The notes under the pieces: model-generated | What the model saw: only the letters and a program-made list of their open reading frames with translations | Databases searched by the model: none | What the model was told of the DNA's origin: nothing | Position numbers and translations under genes: made by a program | DNA from: an uncultured Gemmata sp. | Lineage (GTDB): Bacteria > Planctomycetota > Planctomycetia > Gemmatales > Gemmataceae | DNA length: 64,000 nucleotides | Direction: 5' to 3' | Assembly: GCA_937924775.1 (NCBI GenBank) | Contig: CALDUT010000019.1 | Span: 1 to 64,000 of the forward strand | In this document: one piece after another, positions 1 to 64,000 of the stretch | Position numbering within the stretch: the first letter of the stretch is position 1 | How the letters are laid out: each line of letters begins with the position of its first letter

Positions 1-86
1 CGGTCGCGAAGCTCGGCCCAAACCTCCCAAGGGGCATCAGGCCAAGCCAGCTTCAGGGCTTCCCATTCGTCATGTGGGTTAATCAT
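1..86 (-). CDS. partial small ORF, unknown function, cut by window edge
   Basis: A minus-strand ORF opens with ATG at 86-84 behind a good ribosome site (GAGGTG on the minus strand) and runs off the left edge after about 28 codons. The visible peptide is Trp- and acid-rich (MINPHDEWEALKLAWP...). Its start overlaps the stop of the upstream minus-strand reading frame (79..283) by a few bases, as in translationally coupled mobile-element genes. I do not recognise the family. Confidence 0.4.
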   Translation of the reverse strand, partial: MINPHDEWEALKLAWPDAPWEVWAELRD

Positions 87-283
87 GATCACCTCTTTGG
101 AATTGTACCCCTGTAGAGGCGACGATAGCCAGGATGGCGGCCTTGATGTAATCCGGCAGTGTCGGCCAGGCGTCGATCAGTTCGGCCAAGTCGGGGTCGA
201 TTGAGGAATCTGCTGCGCAGGATGCGACACACTGGTGGGCCGATGCGGTGAATCGCCTAGGATTATGAGGCTTTTGTGGGCGG
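79..283 (-). pseudogene. relic of a recombinase-gene tail next to an att-like tRNA fragment
   Basis: On the minus strand an open frame comes out of the antisense of the tRNA-Arg fragment (reading GVEPVTFGSGGRR, a string typical of ORFs that run across tRNA genes) and ends at TAA 81-79. The last third reads DPDLAELIDAWPTLPDYIKA and AAILAIVAS, a pattern I associate from memory with ORFs at the 3' end of planctomycete tyrosine-recombinase genes. No start codon and no catalytic Arg-His-Arg-Tyr region is present, and a stop lies at 373-375, so only a tail remains. The assignment is an inference from short motifs. Confidence 0.35.
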
Positions 284-335
284 GAGCGTCGGCCTCCGGA
301 GCCGAAGGTTACAGGTTCAACTCCTGTCGGGCATA
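284..335 (+). other. 3' half of tRNA-Arg(CCG), probable att site
   Basis: The segment keeps a D-stem 3' strand (GAGC), a perfect 5-bp anticodon stem (289-293 with 301-305) around loop CTCCGGA with anticodon CCG, a 5-nt variable loop, a perfect 5-bp T stem (311-315 with 323-327) around TTCAACT, and the acceptor 3' strand CGGGCAT at 328-334. The matching acceptor 5' strand and D arm are missing upstream, so this is not a functional tRNA. Such 3' tRNA fragments are the usual product of integrase insertion into a tRNA gene. The orientation puts the element to the left of the fragment. Confidence 0.6.
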
Positions 336-814
336 CTATACAGAGTGAAGTTTCACAAGTCGTTGGCCAAAGTCAACTTAGCCTCTTTTTTAGAGCCTCA
401 TCAACGGATTATGCAAGATACCACAAGTTCCTAAGATACATACTTAACCATCAAACTGTAGCTACATCTCGACCACTCAAACTCAGCTATCATCCAGCAC
501 ACTTCCTCCCGATAGCGCTAACTATGAAGGTATCGTAGCTGTAATCCCAGTGCAAAAAAGAATAAGTTCAACCATGGCAAGCACTTAATATCATGAATCC
601 AGCGTAGCTGACAAGGCGTATCGTTTTGGATTGCCCAGTGAAACCCAAAGACGCTCGGTCCGATTCAACCTCACTCTCTCGGAATCATCGGTTCATTTTT
701 AAAATTTCTGAAAGACCGCCTAACGGCATTCCGTCTGCATTCATTACATTACACCGCGTGCGGAGTACAGAACACCGCATAGCAGACCTCGTACTGGTTG
801 ATCCAACGTGCAGT
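336..814. other. no gene recognised between tRNA fragment and GntR relic
   Basis: No reading frame here has a convincing start, ribosome site or protein pattern. An 85-codon open frame at 626-883 exists, but only its last ~22 codons (from 815) resemble protein, where they form the N-terminus of the broken GntR regulator. The stretch is visibly richer in A+T than the surrounding coding DNA, which fits old non-coding or decayed sequence. Confidence 0.5.
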
Positions 815-1273
815 ATGACTGAGGCTCATCACCCGATTTCTGCCATCCCCATATCTGAGCAGATTTACGAGCATCGGCTGTAGAAAATTGCATCTGGTGA
901 ACTCCAACCGGGATGTGTTTTGGTGGAAAAGGATTTGTCAGAGCAGTTGGAAAACAGCCGAACGCCTGCCCGGGACGCCATTTTACGGCTCATCAAATAC
1001 GGCGTGGTGGACAATGTTGGTCGCTCTGTCCGTGTACGGCAAATGACCGCTTGGGATGTGTAAGACCTCTACCAAGTTCGCCGTGTCTGGGAACTTGAAG
1101 CAGTGGGTTTGGCATGCTGGCGATTTACCACCGACGACTTTGCTCAGGTGGATGCAGCCGCCCCCCGCAATATCAGCGATCCGACTCTTTTTGAACAAAC
1201 ATGTCGTCGTTTTGATGCACTTTTGCATCGCATGATCGGAGAATTACCAGGGAACAAATTACTCGCCTGCTAA
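815..1273 (+). pseudogene. GntR-family (FadR-like) regulator, two in-frame stops
   Basis: One continuous reading phase gives a GntR regulator: an N-terminal helix (SEQIYEHRL), then KIASGELQPG, EQLENSRTPARDAILRL (the winged-helix recognition segment, normally SRTPVREAL.RL), GVVDNVGRSVRVR (wing), then the start of the ligand-binding FCD domain (DLYQVRRVWELEAVGLA). It is interrupted by TAG at 881-883 and TAA at 1061-1063, and ends at TAA 1271-1273, well short of the usual ~220 residues. Members bind DNA as dimers and respond to small acids. With both stops inside conserved domains it cannot make a normal regulator. The next genes on the same strand may once have been its targets or operon partners. 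Confidence 0.75.
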
Positions 1274-1309
1274 ATTCGCAAAATTAATTAATCCTCGAGG
1301 AGATATTCT

Positions 1310-1465
1310 GTGAGATTTTTGCTAGTTATTGTCAGCATCTCATGTTTATGTAGCTATGGCAGTGAGGAGAAAATTCAGAAACCCCAGGATCCAATGCCAA
1401 AATTCGAGCTCGATGCCAAAGCTCAAAAGCAGGCCGGCGCGTTTTTCCCCGCTCGGTCATCCTGA
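1310..1465 (+). CDS. 51-aa exported/lipoprotein-like peptide, GTG start
   Basis: GTG at 1310 follows a good ribosome site (CGAGGAGA, 1295-1302). The peptide starts VRFLLVIVSISCLCSYGS, a short positive end plus hydrophobic stretch with Cys in a lipobox-like place, followed by a charged tail rich in Lys, Gln and Pro. The stop TGA (1463-1465) overlaps the ribosome site of the next small ORF. It could be a real small lipoprotein or the N-terminal stump of a longer gene, because the patch around it contains a dead gene. I recognise no family. Confidence 0.4.
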   Translation: MRFLLVIVSISCLCSYGSEEKIQKPQDPMPKFELDAKAQKQAGAFFPARSS

Positions 1466-1476
1466 GGTAATGATGA

Positions 1477-1656
1477 GTGTCAAAAAAACCATTATTAGGC
1501 ATTGCAGGCATCGTACTTCTGACGATTTGGGTCCTTGGTGGCACCGACTATGGCACACTATGGAGTGCTCAGCTTGCTCCAGCCTCCACCAAGCCGGAGA
1601 AATTGATTGAAAAGTGGGATGGCCCCGGAAGATTACCGACTGATGTGGCTGAGTAA
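1477..1656 (+). CDS. 59-aa single-pass membrane peptide, GTG start
   Basis: GTG at 1477 is preceded by GAGG about 10 nt upstream. The product begins VSKKPLLGIAGIVLLTIWVL, one clear transmembrane helix (residues ~5-20), followed by GGTDYGTLWSAQ and a soluble tail ending PTDVAE. A competing ATG frame starts just upstream but lacks any protein character beyond the run of seven A at 1482-1488. It follows the 51-aa ORF by 11 nt and precedes a terminator, so the two form a small transcription unit. Function unknown. Confidence 0.45.
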   Translation: MSKKPLLGIAGIVLLTIWVLGGTDYGTLWSAQLAPASTKPEKLIEKWDGPGRLPTDVAE

Positions 1657-1701
1657 CCCAAAGACCGAGGAAAGATCGATTTGACCAATCACATGGTGTC
1701 T

Positions 1702-1735
1702 GGGGATTGTATTACAATCCCCAACCGTTTTTTAT
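1702..1735 (+). terminator. intrinsic terminator
   Basis: A perfect 9-bp inverted repeat, GGGGATTGT (1702-1710) and ACAATCCCC (1714-1722), encloses a 3-nt loop and is followed by AACCG and a run of T. It closes the small plus-strand unit at 1310-1656. Confidence 0.75.
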
Positions 1736-1756
1736 ATTCCTTCAACCACAAACCGT

Positions 1757-58591: not shown

Positions 58592-59422
58592 ATGGAAACG
58601 AATGGTCCGTGTGCGGCACTCGCACCATCGCAACGGCTCTTGCGCCGTTTGGACGATTCCCGCACCGCGGAGGCTCTTGAACGTTTGCTCGACCGGCTTG
58701 ACTTGGTCGCTTTTGCGCTGGAAGCCGCCGATGGCTTCCTCCGCCGCGGCGAACAACTCACCGACAACATCCACGACGCCCTTCAGGAAGTGGCGGCTCC
58801 TTCTGTTGACACCGCGGCGGTTTGGGTGGAACAGTTACCACAACTCGTCGCTGCGGCGACGAAATTGACCCCGGTACCGACGTCACCCGCAGTGACGCGT
58901 TTCCTCGCCTCGGGATTCCTCGAACGTTTGGCAGCACCAGCGACGCTCACCGCCTTGCAACAACTTCTCGACCATCTCCCAGTGTTGGCCTTCGTACTCG
59001 AAAGTTTCGACGGTTTGCTCCGCCGCGGCGAGGAATTGACTGAGAACGTGGCCGAAAGTCTCCACGAAGCCTGTAGGCTTACACTCCCCTTCGAAGCGAA
59101 GACGCTGCAACAGATTCTGAACGGGGTCCCCAAAGTCATCGATGCTGTCACCGCACTCATCCACACTGGGCTGTTCGACCCCGAAGTGGTCGCGGTCTTA
59201 GTGGAAGTCGGGCGGCAGATGGCTGGTCCTTATAATGAGGCGAAGTATCGGCCGGATAGCCCGGTCGGCCCGTGGGGGTTGTTCAAGGCCCTGCGCGATC
59301 CCGATGTGCAACGGGCCCTGGGTGTGGGCCTGTACATCGTCAAACGCTATGGTCAAACCTTCAACCGCTCGGAGGTCAGCCCGCCCCCCGCACACCCCTT
59401 GAGGACAGCCAACGATGCATGA
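58592..59422 (+). CDS. DUF1641 protein of the hydrogenase locus
   Basis: ATG at 58592 follows GGAGG by six nucleotides (276 residues). The sequence contains an internal repeat: LLDRLDLVAFALEAADGFLR RGEQLTDN (about 28-60) and LLDHLPVLAFVLESFDGLLR RGEELTEN (about 125-158), each an amphipathic helical pair, followed by a conserved-looking VGPWGLFKALRDPDVQRALG. This is the DUF1641 pattern found beside group 1h [NiFe]-hydrogenases and formate dehydrogenases; its role is unknown. Its TGA overlaps the hypA start by 8 nt, so it is translated with hypA. Confidence 0.7.
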   Translation: METNGPCAALAPSQRLLRRLDDSRTAEALERLLDRLDLVAFALEAADGFLRRGEQLTDNIHDALQEVAAPSVDTAAVWVEQLPQLVAAATKLTPVPTSPAVTRFLASGFLERLAAPATLTALQQLLDHLPVLAFVLESFDGLLRRGEELTENVAESLHEACRLTLPFEAKTLQQILNGVPKVIDAVTALIHTGLFDPEVVAVLVEVGRQMAGPYNEAKYRPDSPVGPWGLFKALRDPDVQRALGVGLYIVKRYGQTFNRSEVSPPPAHPLRTANDA

Positions 59423-59759
59423 ACTCTCCCTAGCGAATCGTTTGGTGCAACTGGCGGAAGCCACCGCGACCGAGGCCGGCGCGCAACGCGTGATCGCCGT
59501 GACGCTACGCGTGGGGGATCTGTCCGGGGTCGCTCTCGATGCTCTCCGCTTTGCCTACGATGTGGCGGCGGCCGGAACACGGTTGGAAGGTTCGCGATTG
59601 GAGCTGCGCCGCGTCGGCGTGCGGGTCTTTTGTAACCCCTGCCAACGGGAAGTGGAACTGCTAAGTGTGCAAAATTTCCGTTGTCCCCTGTGTGGCACGC
59701 CCAGCGGCGATGTCCGCGCCGGCCGGGAACTGGAGATCGAGTCCCTCGAGGTCGAATAA
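59415..59759 (+). CDS. hypA: hydrogenase nickel-incorporation protein HypA
   Basis: The 114-residue product starts MHELSL, so the Ni-binding His2 is present, and carries the zinc pairs C73-NP-C76 and C90-PL-C93. Central LRVGDLSGVALDALRFAYDV is typical. HypA delivers nickel to the hydrogenase large subunit together with HypB, which follows at 15 nt. The reading frame is intact, unlike the structural genes downstream. Confidence 0.93.
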   Translation: MHELSLANRLVQLAEATATEAGAQRVIAVTLRVGDLSGVALDALRFAYDVAAAGTRLEGSRLELRRVGVRVFCNPCQREVELLSVQNFRCPLCGTPSGDVRAGRELEIESLEVE

Positions 59760-59774
59760 CCCGGGAGCAGGACC

Positions 59775-60491
59775 ATGACGATCCCCCGCATTCTCGAAGT
59801 TCGCCAAGGCTTGCTTAAGAAAAACGACGCGATTGCCGCAACTCTGCGGACACAATACCAGACCGCGGGTACTTTTGTGGTCAATCTCGTCTCCAGCCCC
59901 GGTACCGGCAAAACACTGTTCCTCGAACGCACCCTCGCGGCCTTGCGTGACCGCGGCTACCGTCCCGCGGCTTTGGTCGGCGATCTGGAAACGGACAACG
60001 ACGCGCTCCGCCTGGCCCGCAGTGGTGCCCCCGTCCGGCAGATCAACACCCACGGTATCTGCCATCTGGAAGCCGATATGATCGAACGCCATCTTGTGGG
60101 CTGGAACCTCACTGACTTCGACTTCCTCTTCATTGAGAACGTCGGCAATCTCGTTTGCACCTCCAGCTACGACCTGGGCGAACACCTCCGCGTGGTGCTT
60201 CTGGCAGTAACCGAGGGCGAAGACAAACCCCTGAAGTATCCCACGCTGTTCAACACCGCGGATGTGGGCCTCATCACCAAGGCGGATCTCGCCGCGGTCT
60301 GTGAATTCGATCCACTGATAGCGGAACGCAACATTCACGCCGTGCGGCCGGGCCTGCCACTTCTGACCGTCTCCGCGAAAACCGGGCTCGGCATGGCCGC
60401 ATGGTTCGATTTCCTGGTTGCGCATCGTCACCAGCACAACACCGCTCGGTCGGAGGGCTGCCGTGAATCACGCGTCCATTGTCAGCCGTAG
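59775..60491 (+). CDS. hypB: hydrogenase-maturation GTPase HypB
   Basis: A 238-residue GTPase with P-loop SSPGTGKT (40-47), GDLETDNDALRLA, the dimer/metal-site segment THGICHLEADMIE (His and Cys as Ni/Zn ligands), IENVGNLVCTSSYDLGEH, and the base-recognition NTADVGLITKADL. It lacks the N-terminal CxxCGC or His-rich nickel store seen in some HypB. The frame is intact; its last residues overlap the start of a decayed histidine-kinase gene. Confidence 0.92.
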   Translation: MTIPRILEVRQGLLKKNDAIAATLRTQYQTAGTFVVNLVSSPGTGKTLFLERTLAALRDRGYRPAALVGDLETDNDALRLARSGAPVRQINTHGICHLEADMIERHLVGWNLTDFDFLFIENVGNLVCTSSYDLGEHLRVVLLAVTEGEDKPLKYPTLFNTADVGLITKADLAAVCEFDPLIAERNIHAVRPGLPLLTVSAKTGLGMAAWFDFLVAHRHQHNTARSEGCRESRVHCQP

Positions 60492-60916
60492 CCTCACCCC
60501 CGGCGCGAGGGTCGCCCGGAAACAGAAGCGGCTCTACCAAGCTGTGGAAATTCTGCGATCCGCCGTGGAGCTGCTGGGTCGGCAAACTCAGTCCACAGGC
60601 ATAGCGGAGGTCGCGGCCTTGTTTGTCGCGCGAATGACCCAGGCCGAACGCGTGGGTTTGGATGGATAGATAACGACGCGTTCCAACTGCACGCGGTCGT
60701 CGAGAACGGCCGACCACAGGCCACCGTGATCGGCCGCTCCGAAGAATTTGACGCCATCACCCGAGCTCGCCGTACACAACGGCCCATGATCGAAGCAGAT
60801 TATATAGCCGTCCCATCGGCGGCGAATTCCATCTGAAATCGGGACCGTGTGGAACCACCATCGACGTGCGAATAGCGATCCATCACGGCGAACCGACCGA
60901 GTGTCATTCTGATTGA
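60463..60916 (+). pseudogene. histidine kinase remnant, frameshifted and internally deleted
   Basis: A GTG at 60463 (GGAGG upstream) opens a frame reading VEILRSAVELLGRQ and IAEVAALFVARMTQAERVG that stops at 60669. A second frame continues as FGWIDNDAFQLHAVVENGRP QATVIG and ends at 60832. A third reads PIGGEFHLKSGPCGTTIDVR IAI (60812-60880), the C-terminal G2 box of a HATPase domain, ending at TGA 60914-60916. Sensor, dimerisation and most of the ATPase core are missing, so only pieces of a GAF-type sensor kinase remain. It sits directly before the response-regulator relic, its natural partner. Confidence 0.6.
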
Positions 60917-61532
60917 CGATCATGCCCTGGTCCGCCGCGGACTGGCGGCCCTGTTGAACCAAAGCAAGCGGTTCAAAGTGGTCGCTGAAGGCAACCAATG
61001 GTGAGGAGGCGTTGGAATTGGCCCGAGCAGTCCCCCCGCGGATGTTCTGCTTCTGGATCTGGCCATGCCGCGGCTGAATGGGTTGGAAGTAGTCAGCCGG
61101 CTAGCAGATCGGCCGGATCGGCTACGGCTGTTGATTGTGTCGATGTATGACGATGCGGCTTTCGTAGCCCGTGCGTTGCGGGAAGGAGCCGATGGCTATA
61201 TCCTCAAACAAGCATTGGAAGATGACCTCTTCCGAGCATTGGACGCGGTTTGCGCCGGCCAAATCTACCTCTGCCCGCTCATCGAGCGCAAACGGATACA
61301 GGCGGTGGAGCTGAGCGACAGCGATATCACCGAGCGGGAGCGCGAAGTGCTGCAACTGATCGCGGATAGATTGACAACCGCTGAGGTGGCTGAGCGTCTC
61401 TTCATCAGCCCACATACCGCGACACGCCACCGGGCGAATCTCATGCGCAAGCTGAATGTTCATAACCCCGCGGAATTGCTGCGTGCAGCCGCCGCCCGCG
61501 GACTCATCATTCTGCCGCAGCGAACAGACTAA
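60882..61532 (+). pseudogene. NarL/FixJ-type response regulator with two frameshifts
   Basis: The receiver domain reads SVILIDDHALVRRGLAALLN (acid pair present), then NGEEALELARAVP in the next phase, then ADVLLLDLAMPRLNGLEV back in the first phase (phospho-Asp in LLLDLAMP). The +1 slip is near 60995 and the -1 slip in the C6 run at 61032-61037, with a TGA at 61002-61004 between. The rest is intact: ADGYILKQALEDDLFRAL and the LuxR helix-turn-helix REREVLQLIADRLTTAEVAE. No ATG is found; ATC at 60882 sits where a start would be expected. A shorter product from ATG 61065 could still make the DNA-binding half. Confidence 0.75.
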
Positions 61533-61567
61533 CCGAACCCCTTTTTCTTGTGGATGGGAGGTTCCCT

Positions 61568-62536
61568 GTGGCGACGCTTCTGTGGCTCCAGGGCGGGGCT
61601 TGCAGTGGTAACACGATGTCGTTCCGGAATGCGGAAGAACCTAGCGTATGCGATTTGGTGACCGATTTTGGCATTGAAGTGATCTGGCACCCCTCGTTGG
61701 GATTGGAGTTGGGGGATCATGTGAAAATCTTGCTCTACGATCTCATCAACGGTCGACGACCGTTGGACATTTTTGTCTTCGAAGGCACCGTCATTCTTGG
61801 CCCTCATGGGACTGGTCGGTTCAACATGTTTGCCGATCGACCCATGAAAGATTGGGTCCGCGAATTGAGCCAAGTGGCCAATGCCGTAGTAGCCATCGGC
61901 GATTGCGCATGTTGGGGGGTATCCCGGCGACCGCCCCGAATCCGGTTGATAATGTGGGGCTGCAATATGTGAAGCGGGCCCACGGTGGCTATCTGGGGGC
62001 GGATTTCCGCAGCCGCTGGGGGTTGCCGGTCATCAATATTCCCGGCTGTCCGGCCCACCCCGATTGGGTCACACAAATTCTTGTGGCAATCGCCACCGGC
62101 CGCGCCAAAGACATCACGTTGGACGATCTCCAACGCCCGGTGACGTTTTTCAAGACGTTCACGCAATTTGTATGTACGCGCGTTCAGTTATTCGAGTAAA
62201 GCAATCCCCCAAAGAATTGGGCCAAAGCACCCGCACTGGTTATCTGTTCTACGAGTTCGGCTGCCGTGGCCCGATGACGCATTCCCCCTGCAACCGGATT
62301 TTGTGGAACCGGCAGTCGAGCAAGACCCGGCCGGCATGCCCTGCACGGGCTGCACAGAACCCGAATTCCCCTTCTACGATCTGATGCCCGGGACAGTCTC
62401 CAAAACGCAGAAAATCAGCGGGGTGATTCCCAAAGACGTTCCCGCGGGCGTCGATCATGTCACCTACATGGCTCACGCGGCCGCCGCCAAGATCGCGGCT
62501 CCCAAGTGGTCAAAAGAGGACATGTTTGTCGTCTGA
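61568..62536 (+). pseudogene. hhyS: group 1h-like [NiFe]-hydrogenase small subunit, frameshifted
   Basis: GTG at 61568 follows GGAGG by six nucleotides. The pieces, in order but in different phases, spell the small subunit: LLWLQGGACSGNTMSF, EEPSVCDLVTDFGIEVIWHP, IFVFEGTV, MKDWVRELSQVANAVVAIGD CACWG, then (shift in the G6 run 61914-61919) VINIPGCPAHPDWV and FVCTRVQLFE, then (shift at 62197-62210) ELGQSTRTGYLFYEFGCRGP, then (shift near 62330) GMPCTGCTEPEFPFYDL to a natural end KWSKEDMFVV. All Fe-S Cys segments are still readable. The EEPSVCDLVTDFGIE and HPSLG stretches favour group 1h, the high-affinity type. No full-length protein can be made. Confidence 0.85.
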
Positions 62537-62591
62537 TTTTTCACTCTATGTGCAAATTTATACCTAACCTGAAACTCTCCCGGAGTTCCCC

Positions 62592-64000
62592 ATGACCACC
62601 ACTCTCCTGCCCCCCCAATACCCAACGGATCAGCCCCTTGGACCGGGTCGAAGGCGACCTCGACCTCAATATTCAGGTCGATAACGGCGTTGTTACCAAC
62701 GCCTGGACCGAAGCAAGCATGTTCCGCGGCTTCGAGATCATCCTGAAAGGGAAAGACCCGCAAGCCGGCTTGATCGTCACGCCGCGGATCTGCGGTATCT
62801 GTGGTGGGAGCCATTTGTACAAAGCCGCCTATGCTCTGGATACCGCGTGGCGCACGCAGGTGCCGCCCAGCGCCACCTTGGTGCGTAATATCGCCCAAGC
62901 CTGTGAAACCCTGCAATCCATCCCGCGATGGTTTTATGCTCTGTTCGCTATTGATCTTACCAACAAGAACTATGCGAAATCCCTGTTTTACCCGGAAGCG
63001 GTGAGGCGGTTCGCCCCCTTCGTTGGCAGCAGTTACGAACCGGGAGTCACACTCTCCGGCAAACCGGTGGAAATCTACGCGATCTTTGGCGGGCAGTGGC
63101 CGCATAGCAGCTTCATGATTCCCGGCGGTGTGATGTGTGCCCCAACACTCTCCGATGTTACGCGAGCGATCTCGATTCTGGAGTATTGGAAAAACGAATG
63201 GCTCGAAAAACGCTGGCTGGGTTGCTCGGTAGATCGTTGGCTAGAAAACAAAACCTGGAACGATGGTCTGCGTTGGGTGGAGGAAAATGACGCTCAACGC
63301 CACAGCGACTGCGGTTTCTTTCTCCGTATGGGGATGGACATTGGTCTGGACAAATACGGTGAGGGCTGCGGAGCGTATCTGGCCACGGGAACCTATTTCC
63401 AACCGGAATTGTACGAACGGCCGACCATCGAAGGCCGCAATGCAGCTCTCATCAACCGCAGCGGCGTCTGCGACGGCCACGACTTCCACGACTTTGATCA
63501 AGCCCATGTCCGCGAAGATGTCACCCACAGTTTCTATAAGGGCAATTCCTTATTGCACCCGTGAGAGGGTGTCACGGAACCGATCGACCCAGCCGAAGGA
63601 CACAAGCAAGGCAAGTACAGTTGAGCGAAGTCGCCGCGGTATTTGGTGCCAGGGAAAGGACAGATTCCTCTGGAAGCTGGTCCTGTGGCTCGACAGGTGA
63701 TCGCCGGCCGCCCCGGAGCTGCGAAACATCAAGACTACGACCCACTCTTTCTCGACGCCATCAAAACTGTTGGTCCGAGCGTGCTAGTCCGGGTGATGGC
63801 CCGGATGCACGAAGCCGCCAAATACTACAAGCTCGCGCGCCAGTGGCTTGGAGAATTGGACTTACACGACAAGTTCTATTCCAAACCGACTGAACATGCC
63901 GAAGGAAAAGGCTTCGGCAGTACCGAAGCGGCCCGCGGCAGTCTTTCCGACTGGATCGTCATCAAAAATGGGAAAATCGAGAACTACCAAGTGGTGACAC
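62592..64000 (+). pseudogene. hhyL: group 1h-like [NiFe]-hydrogenase large subunit, broken, runs off the window
   Basis: ATG 62592 (CGGAG upstream) begins MTTTLLPP, then an extra C in the C7 run (62610-62616) shifts the phase; the true continuation is ISPLDRVEGDLDLNI. The nickel-site motif TPRICGICGGSHLYKAAYAL is intact. TGA codons at 63562-63564 and 63622-63624 fall where Trp is expected (LLHP-W-EGVTEP and GKYS-W-AKSPRY). Beyond them the frame is open and conserved: IPLEAGPVARQVIAG, AARGSLSDWIVIKNGKIENY. The C-terminal DPC..C..H lies outside the window. It is therefore a pseudogene by one frameshift and two nonsense changes. Confidence 0.85.

What the first reader, a model, noticed from the sequence alone, without database searches (positions are those of the whole stretch)
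58592..64000. A group 1h-like [NiFe]-hydrogenase locus caught in the middle of decay
DUF1641, hypA and hypB are intact, but the next four genes (histidine kinase, response regulator, small and large subunit) carry at least eight indels and several in-frame stops within about 3.2 kb. The first 58 kb show hardly any such damage apart from the 1-1700 scar. Conserved motifs are still readable in all pieces, so the loss is recent. A planctomycete that has just lost, or is losing, high-affinity H2 oxidation would be a useful case of trait loss.
Basis: partly seen in the sequence, partly recalled or inferred. Interest (0 to 1): 0.72.

Follow-up and report, generated by a model that had tools for sequence, protein, structure and literature searches.

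The report
Recently broken atmospheric-hydrogen-oxidising gene cluster
A planctomycete's gene cluster for a Huc-type (group 2a) hydrogenase, an enzyme kind known to oxidise trace hydrogen, has recently been destroyed by small mutations and large deletions, while the enzyme-assembly genes inside the same cluster, probably still needed by a second hydrogenase, stay intact.

Summary
The decay is real, but the enzyme was misnamed and the damage is larger than reported. A same-genus genome (G014) carries the locus intact in full synteny; a second (G018) has the same operon without the regulator pair. Against G014, the own locus has small frameshifts, two nonsense codons and a lost likely start codon across the histidine kinase, response regulator, hucS, hucL and NHL genes, and four large deletions (about 1.2, 2.2, 0.53 and 0.47 kb), three beyond the window end. 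Each of 34 comparison genes (15,100 codons) has one open frame. The large subunit scores 915 bits against M. smegmatis HucL (group 2a) and 122 against the group 1h C. necator enzyme: group 2a, not 1h. DUF1641 is a HucM homologue. hypA, hypC and hypD have one match each in the genome, here; hypE has one above cut-off; all are intact. The only other hydrogenase found is group 3b-like. Best reading: recent loss of Huc, with maturation genes kept for the 3b-like enzyme (inferred). Read mapping was not possible; loss of H2 oxidation by the cell is inferred. New member of a known kind; modest interest.

The parts
58592..59422 (+). hucM homologue (DUF1641), intact
   Evidence: Pfam DUF1641; PDB 7uus chain Q 'Huc Membrane Associated Subunit', E 4e-13; no frameshift against G014
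59415..59759 (+). hypA, intact, only HypA match in the genome
59775..60491 (+). hypB, intact
60463..60919 (+). histidine kinase remnant: 150 of 561 residues aligned, one small frameshift near 60656 plus internal deletion of about 1,228 bp at about 60815
60885..61532 (+). LuxR-type response regulator remnant: likely start codon lost at 60885, small frameshifting insertions near 60994 and 61036
   Evidence: domains of the G014 copy
61568..62536 (+). hucS (group 2a small subunit) pseudogene: three small frameshifting deletions near 61921, 62199, 62333; six own-only changes at otherwise invariant sites (a start-site difference not counted)
62592..64000 (+). hucL (group 2a large subunit) pseudogene, continues to 64218 on the contig: frameshifting insertion near 62616, nonsense codons at 63562 and 63622

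Best explanation
The locus is a Huc-type (group 2a) [NiFe]-hydrogenase operon that this lineage has recently lost. Shown by comparison: the syntenic operon is intact in G014, and the same operon without the kinase-regulator pair is present in G018. In the own genome the Huc-specific genes other than hucM are broken: kinase, response regulator, hucS, hucL, protease hupD (cut by a deletion), TPR gene (gone), 136-aa gene (start removed by the same deletion), NifU-Rieske hucE, NHL gene. hucM, hypA, hypB, hypC, hypD and hypE are intact. hypA, hypC and hypD have no second match in the genome, and hypE has only one above its cut-off. hypF is open elsewhere, and one other hydrogenase, group 3b-like, is open on another contig. 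Inferred: selection on Huc ended recently (roughly the last few percent of the branch since the G014 split); one or more early lesions inactivated it; small indels, GC-to-AT substitutions and deletions then accumulated. The embedded hyp genes stay because the group 3b-like enzyme still needs nickel-site assembly. The organism therefore probably no longer scavenges H2 by Huc.
For: Synteny over own 44.4-99.8 kb at about 80% nucleotide identity. Damage confined to the Huc-specific block: 34 comparison genes (4 of them hucM, hypB, hypD, hypE), 15,100 codons, have 8 alignment events, at residues 9-72, and each keeps one open frame. Four large deletions with both flanks in place; no match to the TPR protein, and no match to the kinase outside this locus, in the genome; only 32-35% identical paralogues of HucE parts elsewhere. 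Small lesions in hucS, hucL and NHL are own-derived against G014 and G018. Own-only changes at invariant sites in hucS+hucL: 10 against 1 for G014, p 0.012; hypB+hypD 1 against 1. GC-to-AT among changes in codons that differ in amino acid: broken genes 66 of 121 own against 25 of 75 G014, p 0.005; hyp genes 42 of 82 against 26 of 59, p 0.49. hypABCDE: 0 events in 3,492 bp, 7.2 expected at the damaged-gene rate, P 0.0007, a post hoc calculation. HypD, HypA, HypC one match each, HypE one above cut-off; hypF open 843 aa; group 3b-like alpha, small, NAD-binding, Fe-S and protease genes open.
Against: No raw reads, so small indels are not individually verified; three (61036, 61921, 62616) lie in or beside runs of C or G. 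The amino-acid relative-rate test is not significant: broken genes 71 own against 36 G014, hyp genes 41 against 33, p 0.16; hucS+hucL alone p 0.084. This fits a very recent loss but gives weak independent proof of relaxed selection. hucM should be useless without Huc yet is intact; by rate this is unsurprising (P 0.19). Kinase and response-regulator lesions could not be polarised with G018, which lacks both genes. The need of the 3b-like enzyme for these hyp genes is general knowledge, not tested.
Confidence: 0.87

Rival explanations
1. Sequencing or assembly artefact: the operon is intact in the cell and the indels, stops and missing segments are consensus errors or misjoins.
For: No reads available; three small indels sit in or beside C or G runs.
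Against: 53 runs of six or more identical bases in 47 kb of flanks (8 in the locus), yet 34 of 34 comparison genes keep one open frame. Four large deletions keep both flanks, and the missing TPR and kinase parts have no match elsewhere in the genome. Nonsense codons and changes at invariant sites are substitutions. Clean and damaged genes follow gene function rather than distance.
Confidence: 0.06
2. Decay is real, but hyp genes are intact only because the loss is too recent or lesions fell elsewhere by chance, not because the 3b-like enzyme needs them.
For: hucM, Huc-specific, is also intact; substitution excess in broken genes is small; the rate calculation is post hoc.
Against: Zero lesions in 3,492 bp of hypABCDE where 7.2 are expected, P 0.0007, assuming an even lesion rate; intact hyp genes lie on both sides of the damaged block; single or only above-cut-off copies plus an open second hydrogenase.
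Confidence: 0.15
3. The genes are functional through recoding, such as TGA read as tryptophan or programmed frameshifting.
For: Both hucL nonsense codons are TGA where G014 and G018 have tryptophan codons.
Against: In 20 of 38 aligned genes of this region the first in-frame stop after the aligned end is TGA; several independent frameshifts, a lost likely start codon and large deletions would not be cured by it.
Confidence: 0.01
4. It is a group 1h (Hhy) locus.
For: Group 1h operons also have conserved hypothetical genes, a HupD protease and an Fe-S protein HhyE, and Hhy too oxidises H2 to sub-atmospheric levels.
Against: HucL match 915 bits against 122 for the group 1h C. necator large subunit; small subunit 591 against 100; Rieske domain in the HucE-type gene; HucM homologue.
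Confidence: 0.01

Closest known systems
Group 2a [NiFe]-hydrogenase Huc of Mycobacterium smegmatis (PDB 7utd, 7uur, 7uus)
   Same: Large and small subunits of the intact G014 copy, and the own hucL fragment, have it as by far the best solved match; HucM homologue upstream; NifU-Rieske HucE-type and NHL genes
   Different: Own copy is broken; the G014/own operon carries a kinase-regulator pair that G018 lacks
huc-like operons on Thermus thermophilus plasmid pTHTHE1601 and a Mycobacterium intracellulare plasmid
   Same: DUF1641, hypA and hypB, small and large subunit, protease, NifU and NHL genes present; large subunit 71-74% identical to G014 and aligned in one piece
   Different: Plasmid-borne; gene order at the hyp end differs in M. 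intracellulare. That gene table cannot show pseudogenes, so intactness beyond the large subunit was not tested
Group 1h (Hhy) [NiFe]-hydrogenase
   Same: Also an uptake enzyme linked to trace H2 oxidation in aerobes
   Different: Sequence match is weak; HhyE is reported without the Rieske motif of HucE
Group 3b-like sulfhydrogenase of the same genome (contig C18)
   Same: [NiFe] enzyme, presumably dependent on the same Hyp proteins
   Different: Has NAD-binding and Fe-S subunits; genes open

Membership tests
Group 2a [NiFe]-hydrogenase (Huc) | Large and small subunits closest to a solved group 2a enzyme | tested here: met
   Intact G014 copies: 915 and 591 bits to M. smegmatis Huc; own hucL fragment 579 bits
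Group 2a [NiFe]-hydrogenase (Huc) | Operon with HucE Rieske protein and NHL-repeat protein | tested here: met
   NifU, Rieske and NHL domains in G014; association reported in PMC7784904 and PMC6883350, passages seen
Group 2a [NiFe]-hydrogenase (Huc) | Placement in a reference phylogeny or HydDB class | not tested
   No tree with reference sequences was built
Group 2a [NiFe]-hydrogenase (Huc) | Working enzyme oxidising H2 | not testable with these tools
   Own genes broken; needs an assay
Group 1h [NiFe]-hydrogenase (Hhy) | Subunits closest to a group 1h enzyme | tested here: not met
   C. necator enzyme 5aa5: 122 and 100 bits only; its group 1h label from PMC10017518 passages
Pseudogene operon | Disabling lesions absent from orthologues and derived in this lineage | tested here: met
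   for hucS, hucL, NHL; TPR, NifU and NHL parts present in G018. Kinase and regulator lesions not polarised with G018, which lacks them; a more distant MAG (L031) has a kinase match over residues 88-547 of 561
Pseudogene operon | Relaxed selection on the broken genes | tested here: inconclusive
   Invariant-site and GC-to-AT tests positive; relative-rate test not significant, p 0.16
Pseudogene operon | Lesions supported by raw reads | not testable with these tools
   No reads held
Group 3b [NiFe]-hydrogenase (second enzyme, C18) | Alpha subunit closest to sulfhydrogenase, with NAD-binding and Fe-S subunits | tested here: met
   9nez sulfhydrogenase 1 alpha 228 bits; Pfam domains. NCBIfam sulfhydrogenase models match but below their cut-offs, hence '3b-like'

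The most novel reading that the evidence does not exclude
Selection is carving the operon gene by gene: the parts a second hydrogenase can use are kept, and intact HucM (DUF1641) is kept too because it has been taken over by the remaining 3b-like enzyme or another membrane redox enzyme.
Probability: 0.08. Interest if true: 0.55.

Novelty: new member of a known kind. Interest (0 to 1): 0.4.

Why it matters
Uptake of trace H2 is a widespread energy supplement in aerobes, and its gain and loss are usually inferred from presence or absence alone (my general knowledge). Here the loss is caught while the remains can still be read, with an intact syntenic relative as reference, and the boundary between broken and intact genes appears to follow function. 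It also warns that hyp genes, or hydrogenase fragments called as genes, do not show that a genome can oxidise H2: a search that reads through stops gives the broken large subunit the same score as the open copy of G018 (1172.5 bits each).

Tried and rejected
Group 1h assignment: rejected. Alternative genetic code: rejected. Decay order, with accessory genes older than catalytic ones: a first codon count suggested strong acceleration in the NHL, hucE and hupD genes, but this came from misaligned codons around deletion junctions; with masked blocks the difference vanished (accessory against hucSL p 0.30). Alignment events not counted as damage: two stops before the likely response-regulator start, a second kinase frameshift and an NHL frameshift at deletion junctions, a frameshift and a stop at the two ends of the 136-aa gene (residues 11 and 134 of 136), and one shadow ORF. 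The response regulator was left out of the invariant-site count because only two other homologues were at hand (6 own-only of 117, 2 G014-only of 113, several upstream of the likely start); hypE had no usable column there. Precedents: searches for decayed uptake or group 2a hydrogenases (20 of 33 papers listed; 15 of 98; 14 of 14), plus passages of PMC3542288, PMC4319584 and PMC10892978, showed me no described decayed huc operon; the hupL case in PMC3542288 is an excision element. These searches cover open-licence papers only, and most listed papers were not opened. No structure prediction was run.
Full report
What was checked. The window is positions 1-64000 of contig C19 (147,902 bases) of a 4.79 Mb genome in 27 contigs, 97% complete. 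A search for nickel-dependent hydrogenase large subunits found two loci in the genome: this one, with two in-frame TGA codons, and one on C18. In the genus search, 8 of 19 genomes, the own one included, had a large-subunit match. With the G014 Huc-type large subunit as query, 3 of 95 family genomes matched at E 1e-20: own, G014 and G018.

Reference locus. G014 carries the locus on a 61.8 kb contig that is collinear with own positions 44.4-99.8 kb at about 80% nucleotide identity. Its order is DUF1641, hypA, hypB, histidine kinase, response regulator, small subunit, large subunit, protease, TPR protein, 136-aa protein, NifU-Rieske protein, NHL protein, hypC, hypD, hypE. G018 has the same order without the kinase-regulator pair.

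The enzyme is group 2a. The G014 large subunit scores 915 bits against the large subunit of M. smegmatis Huc (7utd) and 122 against the C. necator enzyme 5aa5; the small subunit scores 591 against 100. A Nature 2023 paper (PMC10017518, passages seen) calls Huc group 2a and the C. necator enzyme group 1h. Passages of PMC7784904 and PMC6883350 report Rieske-type HucE and NHL genes with group 2a operons and a Rieske motif in HucE but not HhyE. The DUF1641 protein matches the Huc membrane-associated subunit HucM at E 4e-13. The G014 large subunit is 55.9% identical to a hydrogenase on a Sphingopyxis alaskensis RB2256 plasmid; that strain's plasmid-borne enzyme is called group 2a and the strain consumed H2 to sub-atmospheric levels (PMC10305171, passages). 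No phylogeny was built.

The damage. A frameshift-aware protein-to-DNA alignment of 49 G014 ORFs against the own contig was split into 34 comparison genes (at least 150 aa, score over 2.5 per residue; 15,100 codons), 8 ORFs of the hydrogenase block (one a shadow ORF) and 7 short ORFs of 62-111 aa dropped, hypC among them with no event. hypA and hupD were not among the 49 and were aligned. The 34 include hucM, hypB, hypD and hypE. They show 8 events in 7 genes: 7 events lie in the first fifth of the ORF and one at residue 72 of 319 in an ORF that starts inside its neighbour. I read these as over-extended starts. In all 34 the own genome has one open frame reaching the end of the gene, in 32 of them at least 85% as long as the G014 ORF and in two 76%. 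In the hydrogenase block I count 11 small disabling events in 5,332 bp: kinase 1, response regulator 3 (one the lost likely start codon), hucS 3, hucL 3 (two nonsense codons), NHL 1. Four large deletions remove about 1,228 bp of the kinase, about 2.2 kb from the protease through the TPR gene into the 136-aa gene, 531 bp in frame from hucE (its NifU domain), and about 474 bp from the end of hucE into the NHL gene. The exact split of the 2.2 kb deletion is poorly defined (39 of 141 positions matched in that fit); its size rests also on the flanking blastn pieces. In the own genome the TPR protein has no match and the kinase none outside this locus; parts of HucE have only 32-35% identical matches elsewhere. 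The TPR result is an empty answer, although the same protein finds its homologue in G018 by tblastn. Three-way alignments show the small lesions in hucS, hucL and NHL to be own-derived.

Selection. Between own and G014, hucS and hucL are still highly conserved (dN/dS 0.03 and 0.04, dS about 1.15). With masked blocks and G018 as outgroup, own-only against G014-only amino-acid changes are 34/13 in hucS+hucL, 37/23 in the accessory genes, 24/11 in hucM and 41/33 in hypABCDE. None differs clearly from hyp on amino acids (p 0.084, 0.49, 0.22; pooled broken genes p 0.16). At codon positions 1+2 hucM differs (p 0.033, not corrected for several tests), hucS+hucL and the accessory genes do not (p 0.18, 0.22). 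Excess changes are about 0.009 per site in hucS+hucL and 0.016 in the accessory genes, which against dS near 1 between the two genomes puts the loss in roughly the last few percent of the branch. That is an estimate resting on non-significant excesses. Two other tests favour relaxed constraint. At columns invariant in the other homologues (12 for hucS and hucL), hucS+hucL have 10 own-only changes (a start-site difference set aside; one is a nonsense codon) against 1 in G014, while hypB+hypD have 1 and 1. One own-only change replaces a hucS cysteine (C228Y) that, as I recall, is a distal-cluster ligand in standard [NiFe] enzymes. Among changes in codons that differ in amino acid, GC-to-AT makes up 66 of 121 in own against 25 of 75 in G014 (p 0.005), with no such shift in hyp genes (p 0.49).

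Why the hyp genes stay. HypA, HypC and HypD families have one match each in the genome, all in this locus; HypE has one match above cut-off and two weaker ones on other contigs. HypB copy number was not searched. HypF lies on C10 with an open frame of 843 aa. The C18 hydrogenase has open genes for the alpha subunit (best solved match sulfhydrogenase 1), small subunit, NAD-binding subunit, Fe-S subunit and a maturation protease. At the lesion rate of the damaged genes, hypABCDE (3,492 bp) should carry 7.2 lesions and carry none (P 0.0007), while intact hucM is unsurprising (P 0.19). The calculation is post hoc and assumes an even lesion rate. That [NiFe] enzymes need Hyp proteins is general knowledge, not tested here.

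Verdict. A recently decayed huc operon with the maturation genes inside it intact. The kind of event is well known; the example is clean and useful for a specialist. Read mapping would settle the small lesions; the large deletions already make a pure sequencing artefact unlikely.

Noticed in passing
window 1-1756: Start of the contig, no ORF of 120 aa or more; GC of 1-2000 is 0.50 against 0.56-0.66 in the other 2 kb windows; a weak Rfam tRNA match at 266-329 (30.5 bits) not found by ARAGORN.
   Followed up: partly
L016 (G018:C1:2705001-2725000): G018 has a second, distant hydrogenase (about 25% identical large subunit, 32% small subunit) and a HypA/HypB-like pair within about 7 kb downstream of its huc operon.
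   Followed up: no
window 60463-61532 and L015: The kinase-regulator pair is present in G014 (broken in own), not matched in the G018 stretch, and matched in a more distant planctomycete MAG (L031); its role in huc control is unknown. The own kinase N-terminal remnant is only about 53% identical to G014.
   Followed up: no
contig position 64974 (L005 4974): The 531 bp deletion in hucE is in frame and removes the NifU domain while Rieske-like cysteine-histidine motifs stay readable.
   Followed up: partly
L040 and L039: Closely related huc-like operons sit on plasmids of Thermus thermophilus and Mycobacterium intracellulare, which may point to transfer; HucL is found in 3 of 95 family genomes searched.
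   Followed up: no
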